Part shown: piece by piece, positions 5,703 to 37,632 of the stretch
How positions within the stretch are numbered: the stretch's first letter is position 1
Layout: each line of letters opens with the position of its first letter
Assembly: GCA_017526905.1 (NCBI GenBank)
Contig: JAFXQT010000004.1
Coordinates: 1-41,558, forward strand
Length of the DNA stretch: 41,558 nucleotides
Direction: 5' to 3'
Source: Bacteroidaceae bacterium
GTDB taxonomy: Bacteria; Bacteroidota; Bacteroidia; Bacteroidales; Bacteroidaceae
The notes under the pieces: model-generated
Databases searched by the model: none
What the model saw: the letters and a program-made list of their open reading frames with translations, nothing else
What the model was told of the DNA's origin: nothing
Position numbers and translations under genes: made by a program

Positions 5703-6076
5703 CGATAGCTCAACAAGCACCCCACGCTCACGTACAGTGAACAAGCATCTTTTTAACATCTAAAGGCACTAAAAAACGGAAGCCTAAGGGGGAAGTCAAA
5801 ATGGAAGATCTTCAAGTATGAAGTGTCCTTTGGCCGAGCGAAAAAGGACAACACACCATGGGCAGACAGCATCCAGAGCTATCGTCCAGCATGCTCTTCC
5901 TCGTTTTCGTATCTTTAGATGTTATTCACGGCATGTTAGCCCCCCTTCCGTGGCTTCCGTGTTTTTAGATGTTACTCTACTGTGGCAAAGTATCTCTACT
6001 CTTTACTCTCTACTCTCTACTCTCTGCTCTCTACTCTTTACTCTCTACTCTCTGCTCTCTTATCACTGCCAGCAGC
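5703..6076. other. Gene-free region packed with repeats
   Basis: No credible ORF. TAACATCTAAAG (5754-5765) has its exact complement at 5913-5924, and a second copy of that complement core (TTTAGATGTTA) lies at 5964-5974. On the appropriate strand each is followed by a related C-G-G-A-A-G-C-C / G-rich segment, suggesting three degenerate copies of one element, one plus and two minus. The GTCCTT-GGCCGAGCGAAA element at 5824-5842 is the second copy of the repeat at 1422-1440, here closing with AAGGAC to make a hairpin. Confidence 0.6.
5993..6062. repeat. CTCTACT/CTCTGCT pyrimidine tandem repeat
   Basis: About ten imperfect heptamers (CTCTACT, CTTTACT, CTCTGCT) in succession. Similar pyrimidine-on-one-strand heptamer/nonamer tracts occur at 13903-13969, 15161-15238 and 19776-19840. 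Those three directly precede start codons; this one does not. Confidence 0.75.
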
Positions 6077-13893: not shown

Positions 13894-13902
13894 GGGGAAA
13901 GG

Positions 13903-13979
13903 GATAAGAGATAAGAGATAAAAGATAAAAGATAAGAGATAAAAGATAAGGGATAAGAGATAAGAGATGAGGGGGGGGG
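13903..13979. repeat. GATAARA heptamer array plus G9 tract before the M56-TonB start codon
   Basis: Nine to ten heptamers (GATAAGA/GATAAAA) run from 13903 to 13969, and a run of nine G lies at 13971-13979. In the coding direction this is a TCTTATC pyrimidine array ending ten bases before the ATG at 13893. Length change by slippage could alter the leader between repressor and peptidase genes. Confidence 0.8.
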
Positions 13980-15098: not shown

Positions 15099-15239
15099 GG
15101 AGGTAAGGCCCCTGTGGTCCCCCGGCGGGGGACGTCCATTTGAGCCAAAAGGTAACTCTTATTTTTCACTTTTCACTCTTTCACTTTTCACTCTTCACTT
15201 TTCACTCTTCACTTTTCACTCTTCACTTTTCACTTTTCC
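15099..15239 (+). repeat. Shared leader element, copy A (before the DUF554 gene)
   Basis: It begins four bases after the stop codon of the phosphatase gene and ends at the ATG at 15240. First comes GGCCCCTGT with a perfect GTCCCCC/GGGGGAC hairpin (15117-15133), then T-T-T-G-A-G-C-C, then G-G-T-A-A-C-T-C-T-T-A, then a (TTTTCACTC)-type tandem tract (15161-15238). Copy B at 19716-19840 has the same parts in the same order upstream of an unrelated gene. Purpose unknown. Confidence 0.8.
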
Positions 15240-15935
15240 ATGCTTGGCACCATCACAAACACCATCACGATTATCGTAGGCTCCGTGGCCGGAGCCATTA
15301 TGAAACGCGGCATCAAGCCACAATACCAAGAGTGTCTTTTCACCGCCATGGGGCTTGCCTCGTTGGCCCTTGGCTTCAACGCCGTGGCACGCACCATGCC
15401 CAAAAGCGAGTACCCCGTGCTTTTCATCGTCAGCATCGCACTGGGTGCCCTTATCGGCACTGTTCTCAACATAGACCAACGCTTCAAAGGGCTGGTGGAC
15501 CGGTTCGACAAGAGCGAGGATAAAGGCAGCTTGGCCAAAGGGCTCTCCACCGGCATCCTGCTCTACTGCATCGGTACCTTCAGCATCGTCGGCCCCATGC
15601 TCAGCGCGTTGGAAGGCGACAACACCTTCCTCTACACCAATGCCACGCTCGATCTAATCACCTCGGCCGTACTGGCTGCCACCTATGGCATTGGCATGGT
15701 ATGGGCCGCGCCCGTACTGTTCTGCTGGCAGGGCACATTCTACCTTATTGCCAAGCTGTTCGGCCCCATCATTCCCGACACCCTTGTGAATGAAATCATC
15801 ACCGTGGGCGGCACGCTTATCGTGGCATCTGGTTTGTCGCTGCTGAACATCAAGGACTGCAAGTCGCTGAACCTGCTGCCCTCCCTGCTCGTTCCGGTTG
15901 TCTTTTTCCTGCTGAAAGGCTTTGTGGGGCTGTAA
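15240..15935 (+). CDS. DUF554 family membrane protein (231 aa)
   Basis: An integral membrane protein with about seven hydrophobic segments and the DUF554/YdfK pattern: G-T-I-x-N-T-x-T-I-I-V-G-S near the N-terminus, A-L-G-A-L-I-G near residue 70, and G-I-L-L-Y-C-I-G followed by G-P-M. Homologues are widespread and suspected, without firm proof, to be small-molecule transporters. It starts at the ATG immediately after the pyrimidine repeat tract; no Shine-Dalgarno is visible. The convergent ABC exporter gene ends 33 bases downstream. Confidence 0.85.
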   Translation: MLGTITNTITIIVGSVAGAIMKRGIKPQYQECLFTAMGLASLALGFNAVARTMPKSEYPVLFIVSIALGALIGTVLNIDQRFKGLVDRFDKSEDKGSLAKGLSTGILLYCIGTFSIVGPMLSALEGDNTFLYTNATLDLITSAVLAATYGIGMVWAAPVLFCWQGTFYLIAKLFGPIIPDTLVNEIITVGGTLIVASGLSLLNIKDCKSLNLLPSLLVPVVFFLLKGFVGL

Positions 15936-19715: not shown

Positions 19716-19840
19716 GGTGGAGGGCCCCTGTAGCCCCCCGGCGGGAAACGCCCGTTTGAGCCAGAGGTAACTCTTATTTTTCACTTTTCACTCTTTCACT
19801 TTTCACTCTTTCACTTTTCACTCTTTCATTTTTCACTCTC
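19716..19840 (+). repeat. Shared leader element, copy B (before the DJ-1 gene)
   Basis: Same order of parts as 15099-15239: GGCCCCTGT, a C/G-rich hairpin (CGGG at 19742-19745 with CCCG at 19751-19754), T-T-T-G-A-G-C-C, G-G-T-A-A-C-T-C-T-T-A and a TTTTCACTC-type tract (19776-19840) that reaches the start codon at 19841. It differs from copy A by point changes in the hairpin and by fewer tandem units. Confidence 0.8.
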
Positions 19841-27318: not shown

Positions 27319-29511
27319 TCAGCCGAATGCCACCGTCAGGCCCGCCATGACGATGCTGACCATGGACATCAGCTTGATGAGGATGTTAAGCGAGGGGCCG
27401 CTGGTGTCCTTGAAGGGGTCGCCCACGGTGTCGCCCACGATGGTGGCTTTGTGGGCGAACGAGCCCTTGCCGCCGAAGTTGCCTTCCTCCACCATCTTCT
27501 TGGCGTTATCCCACGCACCGCCCGCATTGGCCATGAATACGGCCAGCGTGAAGCCACACGACAGACCGCCCACCAGCAGGCCCAGCACACCGGCCACACC
27601 CAGCACCAGCCCCACCACGATGGGGATGGCGATGGCCAGCAACGACGGGAAGATCATCTCGTGCTGGGCGGCGCGGGTCGAGATTTCCACACACGAGCCG
27701 TAGTCGGGCGTGCCCGTGCCTTCCAGGATGCCCTTGATCTCGCGGAACTGGCGGCGCACCTCGGCCACCATCTTCTGCGCCGCACGTCCCACGGCCTCCA
27801 TGGTCAGGCCGCAGAACAGGAAGGCGGCCATGGCACCGATGAAAGCACCCACCAGCACGCGCGGGTTCATCAGGTTCACTTGGAAGTAGTTCATAAAGTC
27901 GGGGATGGTAGCCTGAGCGGCACTTATCACCTCGCCCTTCAGGTTGGTCAGCGTCATGCCCGCCCGCTCCATGGCAATCTTTATCTCTTCGATATACGAA
28001 GCCAACAGAGCCAGAGCGGTCAGTGCGGCACTGCCTATGGCGAAGCCCTTGCCCGTGGCAGCGGTGGTATTTCCCAGCGCATCGAGGGCGTCGGTGCGGT
28101 GACGCACTTCCTCGCCCAAGTTACTCATCTCAGCGTTGCCGCCGGCATTGTCGGCAATGGGTCCATAGGCGTCTGTGGCCAGGGTGATGCCTAAGGTGGA
28201 GAGCATGCCCACGGCTGCAATACCGATGCCATACAGGCCTTTGGACAGAGCTTCGGCGCTCATCTGCATGTCGAATCCGTTGGCACACAAGTAACTCAGC
28301 ATGATGGCCACGCCGATGGTCACCACAGGCACGCAGGTGGATATCATCCCCGTGCCGATGCCTTTGATGATGACCGTGGCCGAGCCCGTAAGGCCGGCTT
28401 CCGAAATGCGCTGCGTGGGCTTGTACGAGTGCGAGGTGTAGTACTCGGTGGCCTGCCCTATGATGACGCCTGCTGCCAGACCCGTGATCACGGAGAACGA
28501 CAAGCCCAGCCAGCCGTCAATCTGCAACAGATACAGGATCAGGAAGGTGGCGGCGGCAATGAGCAGCGCACTCACATTGGTGCCCACGGAGAGCGAGTGC
28601 AGCAGGTCGCGCATGGTGGCCCCTTCCTTGGTACGAACCAGATAGATGCCCAGGATGCTCAAGAACACACCCACGGCCGCAATGAGCATGGGGGCGATGA
28701 CGGCCTTCATCTGCATATCGCCGCTCATGGCAAAGGCCGTGGCACCCGGCGCGGCGGTGCTCAGTATGGAACCGCAGTAGCTCTCATACAGGTCGGCACC
28801 CATGCCGGCTACGTCGCCCACATTGTCGCCCACATTGTCGGCAATGGTGGCGGGGTTGCGCGGGTCGTCCTCCGGGATATCGGCCTCCACCTTACCCACG
28901 ATGTCGGCCCCCACATCGGCCGCCTTGGTGTAGATGCCACCGCCCACACGGGCAAACAGGGCCTGCGTCGAGGCGCCCATGCCGAAGGTGAGCATCGTGG
29001 TGGTGATGGTGATGAGGGCCATCGAGTCGCCTTGGTAGAACTGGCTCAGCACAACAAACCACAACGCAATATCCAGCAGGCCCAGGCCCACCACCGTCAG
29101 GCCCATCACAGCGCCGCTGCGGAAGGCAATCTTCAGCCCGCCGTCCAGGCTCTGCTGCGCGGCGTGTGCCGTGCGTGCGCTGGCATACGTGGCCGTCTTC
29201 ATGCCGAAGAAACCGGCCAGGCCGGAGAAGAGGCCGCCCGTGAGGAACGCAAACGGCACCCACGGGTTCTGCCATTTCAGCACATAGGCCATAAAGGCAA
29301 AGATGATGGCCAGCACCACAAACACAATGGCAACCACCTTGTACTGCTGTTTCAGATAGGCCATGGCACCGCGGCGCACATGTCCTGCAATTTCACGCAT
29401 TCGCGGCGTGCCTTCATCCGCCGCCATCATCTGGCGGAAGAAACACCACGCCATGCCCAATGCCACCACAGAGGCCACGGGCACAAGCCAGAAAACAGAA
29501 GGAATGTTCAT
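27319..29511 (-). CDS. hppA: Membrane-bound, K+-dependent pyrophosphatase (ion pump)
   Basis: Hydrolyses pyrophosphate and pumps H+ and/or Na+ across the cytoplasmic membrane. The 730-aa protein has about 16 hydrophobic segments. The PPi-binding signature D-V-G-A-D-I-V-G-K-V-E is followed by D-D-P-R-N-P-A-T-I-A-D-N-V-G-D-N-V-G-D and a late D-N-A-x-K/K-A-T-x-G-D-T-V-G-D-P-F-K-D-T-S-G-P-S block. G-N-T-T-A-A has Ala at the position that is Lys in K+-independent enzymes, so potassium dependence is expected. Ion specificity cannot be settled by eye; related Bacteroides enzymes are reported to move both Na+ and H+. Has a well-formed promoter at 29606-29636. Confidence 0.95.
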   Translation of the reverse strand: MNIPSVFWLVPVASVVALGMAWCFFRQMMAADEGTPRMREIAGHVRRGAMAYLKQQYKVVAIVFVVLAIIFAFMAYVLKWQNPWVPFAFLTGGLFSGLAGFFGMKTATYASARTAHAAQQSLDGGLKIAFRSGAVMGLTVVGLGLLDIALWFVVLSQFYQGDSMALITITTTMLTFGMGASTQALFARVGGGIYTKAADVGADIVGKVEADIPEDDPRNPATIADNVGDNVGDVAGMGADLYESYCGSILSTAAPGATAFAMSGDMQMKAVIAPMLIAAVGVFLSILGIYLVRTKEGATMRDLLHSLSVGTNVSALLIAAATFLILYLLQIDGWLGLSFSVITGLAAGVIIGQATEYYTSHSYKPTQRISEAGLTGSATVIIKGIGTGMISTCVPVVTIGVAIMLSYLCANGFDMQMSAEALSKGLYGIGIAAVGMLSTLGITLATDAYGPIADNAGGNAEMSNLGEEVRHRTDALDALGNTTAATGKGFAIGSAALTALALLASYIEEIKIAMERAGMTLTNLKGEVISAAQATIPDFMNYFQVNLMNPRVLVGAFIGAMAAFLFCGLTMEAVGRAAQKMVAEVRRQFREIKGILEGTGTPDYGSCVEISTRAAQHEMIFPSLLAIAIPIVVGLVLGVAGVLGLLVGGLSCGFTLAVFMANAGGAWDNAKKMVEEGNFGGKGSFAHKATIVGDTVGDPFKDTSGPSLNILIKLMSMVSIVMAGLTVAFG

Positions 29512-29605
29512 AGAGGTTATAAAGGTTTTAAAGTTGAATAAATGTCGGATGGCAAGGGGCCGCTACCCTCATAGCACAGGCATCAGGCCCTTTCGGTTGT
29601 GTGGG

Positions 29606-29636
29606 CAAAGATAAACCAAATTAACCACAACACAAA
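29606..29636 (-). promoter_or_regulatory. Promoter of hppA
   Basis: On the minus strand: TTTG (complement of 29633-29636), a 19-base spacer, then TATCTTTG (complement of 29606-29613), an exact consensus match. The repeat array at 29661-29782 lies just upstream of the -33 box. Confidence 0.8.
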
Positions 29637-29660
29637 AGAAAGGCGACAATAATTTGAAAT

Positions 29661-29782
29661 AAGGTGAACCTCAAGGGGCGAACAACAGCTGTCTGCCACC
29701 CGAACGACAGCTGTCATTCACCCGAACGGCAGTTGTTGTTCACCTGCATGACAGCTGTTGTTCGCCCATTGAGGTTAACCTT
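29661..29782. repeat. Four 22-bp CAGCTG repeats inside a 33-bp inverted repeat
   Basis: Four contiguous 22-base units fill 29679-29766 (29679, 29701, 29723, 29745), each with a central dyad: CAGCTG at 29686, 29708 and 29752 and CAGTTG at 29730. The ends of the block, 29661-29693 and 29750-29782, are inverse copies with 31 of 33 positions matching. The block therefore can fold as one large cruciform or present four dyads on one DNA face. It lies between hppA's promoter and the stop codon of the GntR-type gene. No spacers, so not CRISPR. Operator array or terminator are both possible. Confidence 0.8.
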
Positions 29783-29790
29783 GACGAGCA

Positions 29791-30147
29791 TCAGCGTTGC
29801 CCCCAAGCCTCGTCCACCTCGCTGATGTCGATGCCCAGCAGCCGCATCTGGCGGAACAGTTCGGGCAGACGCTCGTTCATGAAGGCGGCACGGCGGGCAC
29901 GCAGAATCTCTCGGCGGGCGTTCTTGGCCACGAAGTAGCCCAGGCCGCGCTGGTTGTAAATGACGCCCTGTCGCGCCAGCTCGTCGTAGGCCTTCACGGC
30001 GGTGTTCACGTTCACGCCCAGTGCCACGGCATATTCGCGCACGCTGGGTATGCGTTCGTCGGCCTTGTACGTGCCGGCCAGGATGTCATCGCAGAGGCGG
30101 TCGGCCATCTGCAGATAGATGGCTTTGTCTGGATTGAAGTTACTCAT
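29791..30147 (-). CDS. GntR-family regulator, YtrA-like (118 aa)
   Basis: A winged helix occupies residues about 8-78, with I-P-S-V-R-E-Y-A-V-A-L-G-V-N-V-N-T-A-V-K-A-Y as the recognition region and G-V-I-Y-N-Q-R-G-L-G-Y-F-V as the wing. Only about 40 helical residues follow, as in the short YtrA subfamily, where they dimerise. YtrA-type genes usually sit with ABC transporter genes, and here the fused ABC gene lies 12 bases upstream in the same operon. It probably represses this operon; candidate operators are the GGCCG/CGGCC dyad at 31941-31952 and the 22-bp array just downstream. Confidence 0.92.
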   Translation of the reverse strand: MSNFNPDKAIYLQMADRLCDDILAGTYKADERIPSVREYAVALGVNVNTAVKAYDELARQGVIYNQRGLGYFVAKNARREILRARRAAFMNERLPELFRQMRLLGIDISEVDEAWGQR

Positions 30148-30159
30148 GGCGGGCGGGGC

Positions 30160-31881
30160 TTAGAGGTTAGTGAAGCGGCCGGTGTCCGTCTGCCAGCTGC
30201 AGAAGATGCGATGGGCCAGCCACAGGCAGAAGGGGGTCATCAGCGTACAGAAGCCCCACCACCAGGGATTCCACTCCACTTCGGTATCGATGCCGAAGAT
30301 GGGCATAACGGTAGAGCCGATGACGCCTGCCGTAAGCCAAATCGATATGAGGCCGACAATGCCCCAAGCCCATTGTGCCCGCCGGAACATGGCGCTGCAC
30401 AACATCTGGAAGAAGAACAAAAACGTGAAGAAGCCGAAATACAAAGGAGTACTGTTGGTTGCTTCCTTGAAGAAGGAAACGAAGTCGCGCAGGAAGAAGC
30501 CGTATATGGGACGGGCCATCTCCGGACATGTCTTCAGCGAGATGAGCATGCGCAGGATGTCGGCCACAGCCACACCTGCCATCACAGCAAACAGCCATAA
30601 CACAAACAGGCCGATGAGACGAGCGCATGTCTTGTGCAGGTTGGTGGCCGGCAGCATCAGCCAGGTGGTGCGTGCCCGCTTGTCGGCCAGGCCTGCGTAG
30701 GTCAACGCGCCGCCGAGTATCAGCAGCCACAAGAGACCTAAGCCCAGACCTTGGCTCAGGCCCTGCAAGCGGAACTGCACCACCTCGGCCGGAGACATCG
30801 TGCCGTAGAGACTCTTGGTGTACTCCGACATGGAAAAGAAGCCCTCCTCCAGGATGAATTTCAGCATAACAACTCCCACAACCACGATCAGCGCCAGCCA
30901 TGGCAGACGGTGATAGGTGGCGTGGAGATAGCGGAGCAGGGGCTGCCATCCCGGCGATGAAGCCGTCGGGTGCTCTGTCTCAAGGGGCTGTGTGGCCTGT
31001 GGGCTGTTGCTCGCCTCCTCCTGACGGATTAGGGAGAAGGGCTTCTCATCGGTCAGCACGGCATTGAACAGCACCTCGAGGTTAACGTTCGTCTCCGGCT
31101 CGTCGGCCTTGCGGGGCCGGATTACGGTCATGCCTTGCACGGAGGGTTCGGCATAGAACGCATCGGCGGTGTCGGCACCGGACGGGCGGGTCTCGAACAC
31201 GAAGCTGTCGGCCAAGGCATCCAAGGGGGTGTTGAGGAGCAGGGGTGCGGCATCGAGGCGTGAGTGACTGAGGATGAGAATGTGATCCAGCAGCTGTTCC
31301 ACATCGTGTACCTGGTGGGTGGAGATGACCACGGTGCGCTCGGCCGTCATGCACTGGGCCACCACGCTTCTGAACTGGCTCTTCGAGGGTATGTCGAGGC
31401 CGTTGGTGGGCTCGTCCATGAGGAGCAGACGGGTGTTGGCAGCCAGCGCAAAAGCGATGAACACCTTCTTGCGTTCGCCCATGGACAAGGCACCGAGGTA
31501 CAAGTTGCGCGTCAGACCGAACGCCGCGAGATTGTGCGTGAACTGCTCGTCGGAGAAGCGGGGATAGAAGGGTGCGTTGATGCGCACGTAGGCATCAAGC
31601 ATCAACGACGGCAGCTCGAACTCCTCGGGCAGCAGGAACACCTCGCGCAGGAATTCGGGGCGGCGGCAGAAGGGTGTCTGCACCGACGGACAATGGGCCG
31701 TGACACGCCCCGACGCAGGGCGCAACAGGCCTGACATGAGGCCGAGCAGCGTGCTCTTGCCCGTGCCGTTCTCACCCAACAGGCCATACACGCGGCCAGG
31801 GGCCAACTGGAGGTTCAGGCCACGGAACACAGGCCGGGCCGAACGCTTGTAGCGGAAGCTTACGTTAGTGAAGGTAATCAT
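30160..31881 (-). CDS. ABC transporter, ATPase fused to ABC-2-type permease (573 aa)
   Basis: Residues 1-210 are an ATPase: G-E-N-G-T-G-K-S-T (36-44), L-S-M-G-E (132-136), L-L-L-M-D-E-P (152-158) and a switch histidine in V-I-S-T-H. After a linker (about 215-310) come about six transmembrane segments (from about 313), including G-L-L-W-L-L-I-L-G-G-A-L-T-Y-A-G-L-A-D-K-R-A-R-T-T-type text like ABC-2 permeases that carry a K-R after the second helix. YtrBCD-like systems normally have separate ATPase and membrane genes, so the fusion is unusual. The substrate is unknown; the family includes stress and antibiotic-response exporters. It precedes its GntR regulator in the operon. Confidence 0.85.
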   Translation of the reverse strand: MITFTNVSFRYKRSARPVFRGLNLQLAPGRVYGLLGENGTGKSTLLGLMSGLLRPASGRVTAHCPSVQTPFCRRPEFLREVFLLPEEFELPSLMLDAYVRINAPFYPRFSDEQFTHNLAAFGLTRNLYLGALSMGERKKVFIAFALAANTRLLLMDEPTNGLDIPSKSQFRSVVAQCMTAERTVVISTHQVHDVEQLLDHILILSHSRLDAAPLLLNTPLDALADSFVFETRPSGADTADAFYAEPSVQGMTVIRPRKADEPETNVNLEVLFNAVLTDEKPFSLIRQEEASNSPQATQPLETEHPTASSPGWQPLLRYLHATYHRLPWLALIVVVGVVMLKFILEEGFFSMSEYTKSLYGTMSPAEVVQFRLQGLSQGLGLGLLWLLILGGALTYAGLADKRARTTWLMLPATNLHKTCARLIGLFVLWLFAVMAGVAVADILRMLISLKTCPEMARPIYGFFLRDFVSFFKEATNSTPLYFGFFTFLFFFQMLCSAMFRRAQWAWGIVGLISIWLTAGVIGSTVMPIFGIDTEVEWNPWWWGFCTLMTPFCLWLAHRIFCSWQTDTGRFTNL

Positions 31882-37393: not shown

Positions 37394-37454
37394 ACAGATT
37401 TCCGAAACGCTCCGTCCTCGAAGGGCGCCCGGCGCACAAAGGCGTATTAACGCT

Positions 37455-37620
37455 GCGGCAGGTCTTCTGACTCGTTCCCAGTGGGGCACCTTCCCAAGCC
37501 TGCACTCAGCAGGCCCAGTGGCATCACAGGCCTCACCTATCGATGGAACTTACAGCTGCGGGACAGTTCGGGAGTTGCACCCGATTCCCTCTTCGTCGCA
37601 TACCTTGCGAACCGCAACTA
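37455..37620 (-). promoter_or_regulatory. Cobalamin (B12) riboswitch
   Basis: Read on the minus strand, the region contains the B12-box elements in order: G-G-G-A-A-T-C-G-G-G-T-G near 37580, C-T-G-T-C-C-C-G-C near 37560, the conserved G-C-C-A-C-T-G core near 37520, G-G-G-A-A-G-G-T-G near 37495, and the closing G-T-C-A-G-A-A-G-A-C-C-T-G-C-C (37457-37471). Binding of adenosylcobalamin would shut off the btuB operon. It ends about 64 bases before the start codon. The expression platform (terminator or start-site occlusion) is not clear by eye. Confidence 0.92.
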
Positions 37621-37632
37621 CTGAAAGCGGCG

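What the first reader, a model, noticed from the sequence alone, without database searches (positions are those of the whole stretch)
29661..29782. Four 22-bp dyads nested in a 33-bp inverted repeat
A 122-base block of exact periodicity with a CAGCTG dyad per unit, between an hppA promoter and a GntR gene. As DNA it offers four evenly phased sites on one face; as RNA it would fold into one very long stem. I know of no named element with this design.
Basis: partly seen in the sequence, partly recalled or inferred. Interest (0 to 1): 0.75.

Follow-up and report, generated by a model that had tools for sequence, protein, structure and literature searches.

The report
Four-unit 22-bp palindrome array, dispersed
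Between two genes of a Prevotella-like bacterium lies a small block of four short mirror-symmetric DNA sites set exactly 22 bases apart; blocks with other sequences but the same spacing are scattered through this and related genomes, and they look like docking sites for an unknown DNA-binding protein.

Summary
The block is real: four dyads (three CAGCTG, one CAGTTG) at exact 22-bp steps, flanked by GGTGAACC and GGTTAACC boxes on the same grid. Shuffles do not come near its periodicity. It is not tied to GntR or hppA: seven copies (six with four units, one with three) lie beside unrelated genes in this genome. The 22-bp design recurs in relatives with other cores; in Prevotella communis nine loci each hold four GAGTTAACTC-type cores. 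A 22-bp peak stands out in samples of this genome and of 20 genus genomes; a smaller sample of other families of the order has one such array.

In the CAGCTG families cores are kept and spacers are not, the step between cores does not vary in the own copies, and symmetric pairing is high at the core and about 9 bp out but lower between. Unit order does not favour a long RNA stem in this genome. I favour DNA sites packed by a dimeric protein, carried by dispersed intergenic elements; the protein is unknown. Rivals: a MITE/REP-like repeat without function, or a 3'-UTR RNA hairpin. Terminal inverted repeats, target duplications (by eye, one pair) and the REP transposase domain were not found. Nine paper searches gave no description.

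The parts
29661..29782 (.). whole block: inverted repeat of 59-nt arms holding a 22-bp tandem array
29663..29670 (.). left outer box GGTGAACC, 22 bp from the first core
   Evidence: layout; (7 of 8 matches to GGTTAACC at the grid place)
29685..29692 (.). core 1, ACAGCTGT
29707..29714 (.). core 2, ACAGCTGT
29729..29736 (.). core 3, GCAGTTGT (two differences from ACAGCTGT)
29751..29758 (.). core 4, ACAGCTGT
29773..29780 (.). right outer box GGTTAACC, 22 bp from the last core
   Evidence: layout; (8 of 8 matches)
29791..30147 (-). GntR-family regulator gene (Pfam PF00392); 8 bp from the block; neighbour only
27319..29511 (-). hppA, membrane pyrophosphatase (PF03030); neighbour only

Best explanation
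The block is one copy of a dispersed intergenic element made of dyad-symmetric DNA sites on a rigid 22-bp grid, most often four per array. Each 22-bp unit is most likely one site for a homodimeric DNA-binding protein that touches the core (ACANNTGT here) and a base pair about 9 bp to either side. The 22-bp step would be the packing distance of neighbouring dimers, so an array loads about four dimers side by side. The elements lie beside genes with no common function, so a chromosome-level role is likelier than control of one regulon: for example a nucleoid-type protein cluster, or a boundary near gene ends. Shown here: the grid, core conservation within the CAGCTG families, fixed core-to-core spacing in the own copies, dispersal, and recurrence with other core sequences in relatives. 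Inferred: the protein, its dimeric packing and any effect.
For: A profile of the seven copies finds those seven places in the own assembly and no other at E<=1 (150 of 465 first-look candidates were scored). All 20 core-to-core steps are 22 bp although the copies average 74% identity per column. Core identity is 0.89, spacer 0.51, in the six copies of four units; in P. communis 0.79 against 0.47 between units of different index. In non-coding DNA of a 407-kb own sample, over distances 8-79, ACANNTGT pairs occur only at 22, 44, 66 (6, 4, 2), GGTNNACC at 22, 44, 66 (6, 4, 2) plus one at 61, AAGN8CTT at 22, 44, 66 (14, 8, 3); none at 22 in coding DNA. Perfect 8-bp palindromes: 17 non-coding pairs at 22 against 0.7 expected; coding 3 against 4.1. 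Own-unit dyad pairing in this genome: 0.93-1.0 at 8-10|13-15, 0.85 at 3|20, only 0.30-0.56 at 4-7|16-19. Pair 3|20 is also high in G110 (0.88) and G015 (0.75), whose spacers differ, with a trough (0.15-0.50) at 5-7|16-18 in both. A selected continuous stem should not show such a gap. Dyad test: 17 of 30 arrays in the own and genus samples at p<=0.05, against 21 of 183 arrays of other periods.
Against: No protein is identified. Several unrelated cores share the grid in one genome, sometimes in one array, which needs several proteins or a shape reader. If the 80 GntR loci are added, the dyad test gives 19 of 46 (2 of 16 there). In G110 pair 8|15 is only 0.46 and 4|19 is 0.79, so the contact pattern is not identical between species. 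A cross-validated profile over mixed families is nearly flat. The outer boxes are weak in some copies: 9 of 14 match GGTTAACC at 6 or more of 8 at the grid place, and 12 of 14 match best there within 4 bp. Positions are not conserved: of 26 genomes with a readable serS end, an array precedes the next gene in this species, in G010 (other sequence) and weakly in G041, while in 18 a same-strand gene follows within 113 bp. In P. communis whole elements with flanks are duplicated, so part of the likeness is plain descent; three related copies fold best in their native order (1 of 24), which hints at RNA. In the 400-kb P. communis sample period 22 (5 arrays) is below 14 (7), 21 (9) and 33 (6), and palindromes show no excess at 22 (2 pairs, 0.98 expected).
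Confidence: 0.45

Rival explanations
1. A dispersed, non-coding repeat of the MITE/REP/BrickBuilt sort: a small element with an internal palindromic minisatellite that spreads by copying and has no function of its own; the 22-bp step reflects how units are duplicated.
For: Dispersed copies beside unrelated genes. Nine P. communis copies keep unit order (spacer identity 0.771 for the same index, 0.469 otherwise), and two share 229 bp with sharp ends. In G110 unit number varies (4 to 7) between similar flanks. Within-copy spacer homogenisation in the own copies, p=0.003.
Against: Cores are kept while spacers are lost, and all 20 own core-to-core steps are 22 bp. Own copies show no unit-index homology (0.507 against 0.508). 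No TIR or TSD seen by eye at the one sharp pair of ends. No Y1_Tnp domain in the own assembly. The same period recurs with unrelated sequences.
Confidence: 0.3
2. An RNA-level element: a long hairpin in the 3' untranslated region that protects the upstream mRNA or helps termination.
For: The window copy folds at -82.2 kcal/mol, z -13.6 on the plus strand; z -9.9 on the minus strand. It lies 8 bp after the GntR stop codon. Of 30 arrays of the own and genus samples 28 could be placed: 9 lie between convergent genes (about 4.2 expected, P=0.017), and 11 of 16 in tandem gaps are nearer the upstream stop. In P. communis six of nine copies share a right flank; five of these have an intact GGCC-type hairpin right after the array, four of the five with a T-run (by eye, and related by descent). 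Two own copies (C22, C41) have a strong separate hairpin beside the array. Three P. communis copies fold best in native order.
Against: In the seven own copies native unit order folds no better than reordered units (orders folding at least as well: 2, 17, 8, 12, 21, 24 of 24, and 2 of 6). Dyad pairing has a gap between the core and pair 3|20. 3 of 28 arrays lie in divergent gaps (5.4 expected, P=0.19, so not a significant lack). A standard scan finds no terminator at the window copy. A hairpin does not need a common 22-bp step.
Confidence: 0.16
3. An operator array of the adjacent GntR regulator controlling hppA or its own operon.
For: Adjacency; dyads suit a dimeric helix-turn-helix protein (general knowledge).
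Against: Six other copies have no GntR neighbour; no GntR match in 21 hppA loci of genus relatives; the block lies at the 3' end of the GntR gene.
Confidence: 0.04

Closest known systems
BrickBuilt of Porphyromonas gingivalis (PMC4596501; passages seen)
   Same: Bacteroidales; a dispersed non-coding element with internal short tandem repeats (23 nt).
   Different: BrickBuilt has a leader, a tail and terminal inverted repeats like those of ISPg1/ISPg9; the word stem 'palindrom' does not occur in its main text. Here the units are dyads on a 22-bp grid and no TIR was found.
PINSR of Prevotella intermedia/nigrescens (PMC4755523; abstract, passages and section 3.4 read)
   Same: Prevotella-lineage-specific intergenic repeat without terminal inverted repeats, non-coding, many copies, function unknown.
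   Different: 188 bp, 177 and 184 copies; no 22-bp periodicity is mentioned in the section read. I had no PINSR sequence to compare.
REP/BIME elements of enterobacteria (recalled)
   Same: Palindromic, extragenic, often at gene 3' ends, dispersed, species-specific.
   Different: REPs are longer stem-loops tied to RAYT (Y1_Tnp) transposases (recalled); that domain is absent from the own assembly. No 22-bp grid is known to me.
ArgR-type tandem operator boxes (recalled; PMC7248756 seen only in the search listing)
   Same: Two-fold sites packed at about 21 bp (recalled).
   Different: Two boxes at arginine genes, not four-unit arrays scattered beside unrelated genes.

Membership tests
MITE | terminal inverted repeats | tested here: not met
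   By eye, none at the only sharp-ended pair (p238k/p320k of P. communis, 229 bp); some own copies continue on the grid beyond the outer boxes (by eye)
MITE | target site duplication | tested here: inconclusive
   None seen at the ends of the one pair; no empty site available
REP/BIME | genome codes for a Y1 (RAYT) transposase | tested here: not met
   PF01797: 0 matches in the own assembly (79% complete); control rings in 5 of 14 genomes
REP/BIME | extragenic palindromes, dispersed | tested here: met
BrickBuilt | 23-nt direct repeats inside an element with ISPg1-like TIRs | tested here: not met
   Period 22; no TIR seen; definition from passages of PMC4596501
PINSR | 188-bp consensus sequence | not tested
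   Consensus not available as text; section 3.4 read
Intrinsic terminator | hairpin followed by a T-run | tested here: not met
   0 found at 29400-29900; a looser scan flags one weak 7-bp stem inside the array on the minus strand; in P. communis a separate hairpin follows five of nine arrays
Known Rfam RNA | match above the gathering score | tested here: not met
   Window: only a cobalamin riboswitch elsewhere; P. communis arrays: only hits to microRNA families far below their gathering scores
GntR operator | bound by GntR, recurring at GntR genes | tested here: not met
   Recurrence tested and absent; binding not testable here
Protein-site array | conserved dyad cores, variable spacers, fixed step | tested here: met
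   for the CAGCTG families; the mixed-family profile is nearly flat
Protein-site array | a protein that binds it | not testable with these tools
   no candidate

The most novel reading that the evidence does not exclude
Prevotella and close relatives carry an undescribed, lineage-wide class of intergenic protein-docking arrays: mostly four dyads at a fixed 22-bp step, five to eleven arrays found per family and genome, whose core sequence turns over between species while the geometry is kept, read by a fast-evolving chromosome-organising protein family.
Probability: 0.3. Interest if true: 0.82.

Novelty: new variant of a known kind. Interest (0 to 1): 0.6.

Why it matters
Dispersed intergenic palindromes are known, but here a strict geometry (22 bp, mostly four units) recurs while the sequence changes from family to family and species to species. 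That separates geometry from sequence and makes a direct test possible: pull down what binds an array and vary its step. If a protein is found, a very common group of gut and rumen bacteria would have a chromosome-binding system that nobody has named. If not, the arrays are a compact model of how palindromic minisatellites arise.

Tried and rejected
GntR operator: rejected, as six other copies have other neighbours. Conserved hppA-GntR synteny: none in 21 loci. Common regulon: neighbours of the seven copies are unrelated. Long RNA stem as the conserved feature: not supported in the own genome, though three related P. communis copies favour it. REP by Y1 transposase: none. Positional conservation after serS: not found. 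Four-unit palindromic calls just before GntR in some Prevotella loci lie, by eye, in the end of the upstream coding sequence. The cross-validated profile over mixed families is nearly flat; only the profiles within families support the core/spacer contrast. In one search the row for other families was spoiled by runs of N; it was dropped and redone without N (0 pairs at 22 bp, 0.81 expected). Three of the 14 G110 places hold no chain of CAGCTG cores and were left out. PINSR could not be compared for lack of its sequence. On re-checking I restated the outer boxes, the hairpins beside P. communis arrays, the serS counts and the dyad test with all loci; confidence went from 0.48 to 0.45 for these.

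Limits of the samples. The own-genome stretches were taken from contigs that had appeared in the element search, so they are not random; three CAGCTG copies fall in the sample, but 12 of its 14 arrays are of other sequence. Of the 20 genus genomes, seven had a weak profile hit; they supplied 3 of the 16 arrays. The P. communis loci were found with a pattern that needs one core pair at 22 bp.

Full report
WHAT IS THERE. Window 29661-29782 holds four dyads at exact 22-bp steps: ACAGCTGT at 29685, 29707 and 29751, and GCAGTTGT at 29729. The two 59-nt arms are 80% complementary. Lag-22 identity is 0.79; 2000 dinucleotide shuffles of the gap reach at most 0.53. Tandem palindromes are also inverted repeats, so the long inverted repeat follows partly from the unit design. 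The block lies 8 bp after the stop codon of a GntR gene; hppA, on the same strand, starts 149 bp beyond its other end.

THE ORGANISM. The window is contig 51 of a 2.80-Mb draft genome, 79% complete. The 80 named GntR relatives kept are 66-77% identical; nearly all are called Prevotella or Prevotellaceae, the rest Segatella, Alloprevotella, Bacteroidaceae, Bacteroidales or just bacterium. HppA is 91% identical to that of Prevotella communis E15-14 (15 of 20 named genomes had a match), against 88-94% in the 21 genus relatives with a match, of 60 searched. I call it Prevotella-like.

COPIES IN THE SAME GENOME. A sequence-only profile of the seven copies finds these seven places, each on both strands, and no other at E<=1; 150 of 465 first-look candidates were scored. 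Six have four units and one has three. All 20 core-to-core steps are 22 bp. The outer boxes are clear in some copies and weak in others: at the grid place 9 of 14 match GGTTAACC at 6 or more of 8 positions, and 12 of 14 match best there within 4 bp. The neighbours are unrelated: PAP2 and tetrapyrrole methylase; NhaA and DUF4859; CHAT and a nucleoside gate protein; an iron-sulfur protein of the dihydroorotate dehydrogenase B/dihydropyrimidine dehydrogenase type and seryl-tRNA synthetase; an aspartyl protease and a lectin-like protein; a rhamnogalacturonan lyase and an unknown protein; H-pyrophosphatase and GntR. Three copies lie between convergent genes, four in tandem gaps, none in divergent gaps.

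A WIDER CLASS. In 407 kb of this genome (the window plus 20 stretches, from contigs already seen), 14 arrays have period 22, against 1, 0, 1 and 0 for periods 19, 20, 23 and 25. Periods 44 and 66 follow as harmonics (9 and 6), while 21 (15), 14 (13) and 28 (10) are also high, which I put down to heptamer tracts and codon-multiple repeats. Twelve of the 14 are not CAGCTG arrays. Several core types appear: ACAGCTGT, GGGTTAACCC, AAG-N8-CTT and GAGAC-N6-GTCTC. In non-coding DNA, pairs of the same core fall at 22, 44 and 66 bp and almost nowhere else for these types; AAG-N7-CTT also shows 23, 45 and 67, and AAG-N6-CTT no pairs. One genome thus holds several families on the same step, sometimes within one array. 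In these other families the arrays laid out have about three to eight units.

RELATIVES. The window block matches none of 40 other genomes at E<=0.01 by BLAST. The profile finds matches, much weaker, in 13 of 138 other genus genomes (stricter filters). Of 17 such loci that I looked at, of 26 fetched, 13 have period 22 and four (L168, L169, L170, L172) do not. A 392-kb sample of 20 genus genomes has 16 arrays of period 22 and none of 19, 20, 23, 25 or 26 (21: 10; 14: 9; 24: 4). A 258-kb sample, 20 stretches from 16 genomes of other families of the order, has one; it is smaller and some of its contigs are short. In 80 GntR-centred loci (620 kb) 14 arrays of period 22 were found, but 21 and 18 are also high (16 and 10), and at the laxer threshold only 2 of 16 arrays pass the dyad test. 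In P. communis nine loci hold exactly four GAGTTAACTC-type cores; they were found by a pattern that requires one pair at 22 bp; the reversed control pattern gives none. But in a 400-kb sample of the same chromosome period 22 is not exceptional (5 arrays, against 7 of period 14, 9 of 21 and 6 of 33), and perfect palindromes show no excess at 22. In the genus sample the palindrome excess is modest: 6 pairs at 22 against 1.0 expected, largest other distance 4. In G110, 11 of 14 places are CAGCTG arrays with 4,4,7,4,4,4,5,4,7,4,5 units (one would count 8 under laxer matching); in G015 five arrays have 5,4,4,4,3. Over these four families (own, P. communis, G110, G015) 25 of 32 arrays have exactly four.

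WHAT IS CONSERVED. Over the 27 own units A8 is kept in 25, C9 27, A10 27, T13 27, G14 26, T15 27, G3 24 and C20 26; the two central positions in 22 each. Core identity is 0.89, spacer identity 0.51, in six copies of four units. Symmetric pairing within a unit is 0.93-1.0 at 8-10|13-15 and 0.85 at 3|20, but 0.30-0.56 at 4-7|16-19. In G110 it is 1.0 at 9-10|13-14, 0.88 at 3|20 and 0.79 at 4|19, but 0.46-0.50 at 5-8|15-18. In G015 it is 0.9-1.0 at 8-11|12-15, 0.75 at 3|20, 0.70 at 4|19 and 1.0 at 1|22, but 0.15-0.50 at 5-7|16-18. The spacer sequences of the three differ. I read this as contacts of a dimer at the core and about 9 bp out. A minisatellite drifting freely should lose cores as fast as spacers, and a stem under selection should keep the pairs between. 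The claim rests on the CAGCTG families and, less cleanly, on P. communis, since a mixed-family, cross-validated profile is nearly flat. The dyad test passes (p<=0.05) in 17 of 30 arrays of the own and genus samples, 19 of 46 with the GntR loci added, against 21 of 183 arrays of other periods in the three sets together.

RNA OR DNA. The window copy folds into a strong hairpin on either strand. In the seven own copies, however, native unit order folds no better than reordered units. In P. communis three related copies are best of 24 orders and the others rank 2 to 17, so an RNA role is not excluded there. Six of the nine P. communis copies share a right flank; in five a GGCC-type hairpin follows the array directly, four of the five with a T-run. 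Among own copies, C22 and C41 have a strong separate hairpin beside the array. Of 30 arrays, 28 could be placed: 9 between convergent genes (about 4.2 expected, P=0.017), 16 in tandem gaps, 3 in divergent gaps (about 5.4 expected, P=0.19). Gene calls come from a simple hexamer script of mine, not a curated annotation.

HOW THEY SPREAD. The nine P. communis copies keep unit order (spacer identity 0.771 for the same index, 0.469 otherwise), so they spread as wholes. Two share 229 bp with sharp ends and no terminal inverted repeat or target duplication that I could see. One P. communis array lies near an IS110-type transposase gene. The own copies have lost or never had unit-order homology (p=0.51), while units within a copy are more alike (p=0.003). 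Downstream of serS, of 26 genomes with a readable end, an array precedes the next gene in this species, in G010 with another sequence and weakly in G041; in 18 a same-strand gene follows within 113 bp.

KNOWN ELEMENTS. BrickBuilt (PMC4596501, passages) is the nearest in build; PINSR (PMC4755523, abstract, passages and section 3.4) the nearest in host and habit. The Y1 transposase domain that defines REP-mobilising RAYTs (recalled) is absent from this assembly. Nine paper searches listed no description of 22-bp palindromic arrays in Prevotella; I judged by titles, abstract starts and the few papers opened, and subscription journals are mostly missing from that library.

VERDICT. Site arrays for an unknown dimeric protein, carried by dispersed intergenic elements, is my best reading (0.45). 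The protein and any effect are inferred, not shown.

Noticed in passing
window 5993-6069, 13899-13968, 15163-15238, 19778-19839: Heptamer tracts (TCTCTAC, AAGAGAT, TTTTCAC types), reminiscent of the intergenic heptamer repeats described in Beggiatoaceae, Cyanobacteria and some Bacteroidetes (PMC4679880, abstract and outline seen).
   Followed up: no
window about 15139-15240 and 19754-19840: Two heptamer tracts share a left flank (TTTGAGCCA..AGGTAACTCTTATTTTTCAC), so a somewhat larger piece was duplicated.
   Followed up: no
window 37440-37631: Cobalamin riboswitch on the minus strand, 105 bits.
   Followed up: no
window 29606-29613: TATCTTTG on the minus strand upstream of hppA fits the recalled Bacteroidetes -7 element TAnnTTTG; a possible hppA promoter (sequence).
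   Followed up: no
window 30160-31881 and 29791-30147: An ABC ATPase gene (573 aa, with apparent membrane segments) comes before the GntR gene; the usual order is the reverse (recalled).
   Followed up: no
own-genome sample: A smaller excess of palindrome pairs at 23, 46 and 69 bp (6, 4, 3) suggests a second array type with a 23-bp step.
   Followed up: no
L301 455-510: Another small palindrome array (GATAGTTATC type, starts at 455, 477, 500) in G110.
   Followed up: no
L290 2016-3068: An IS110-type transposase gene near one P. communis array.
   Followed up: no
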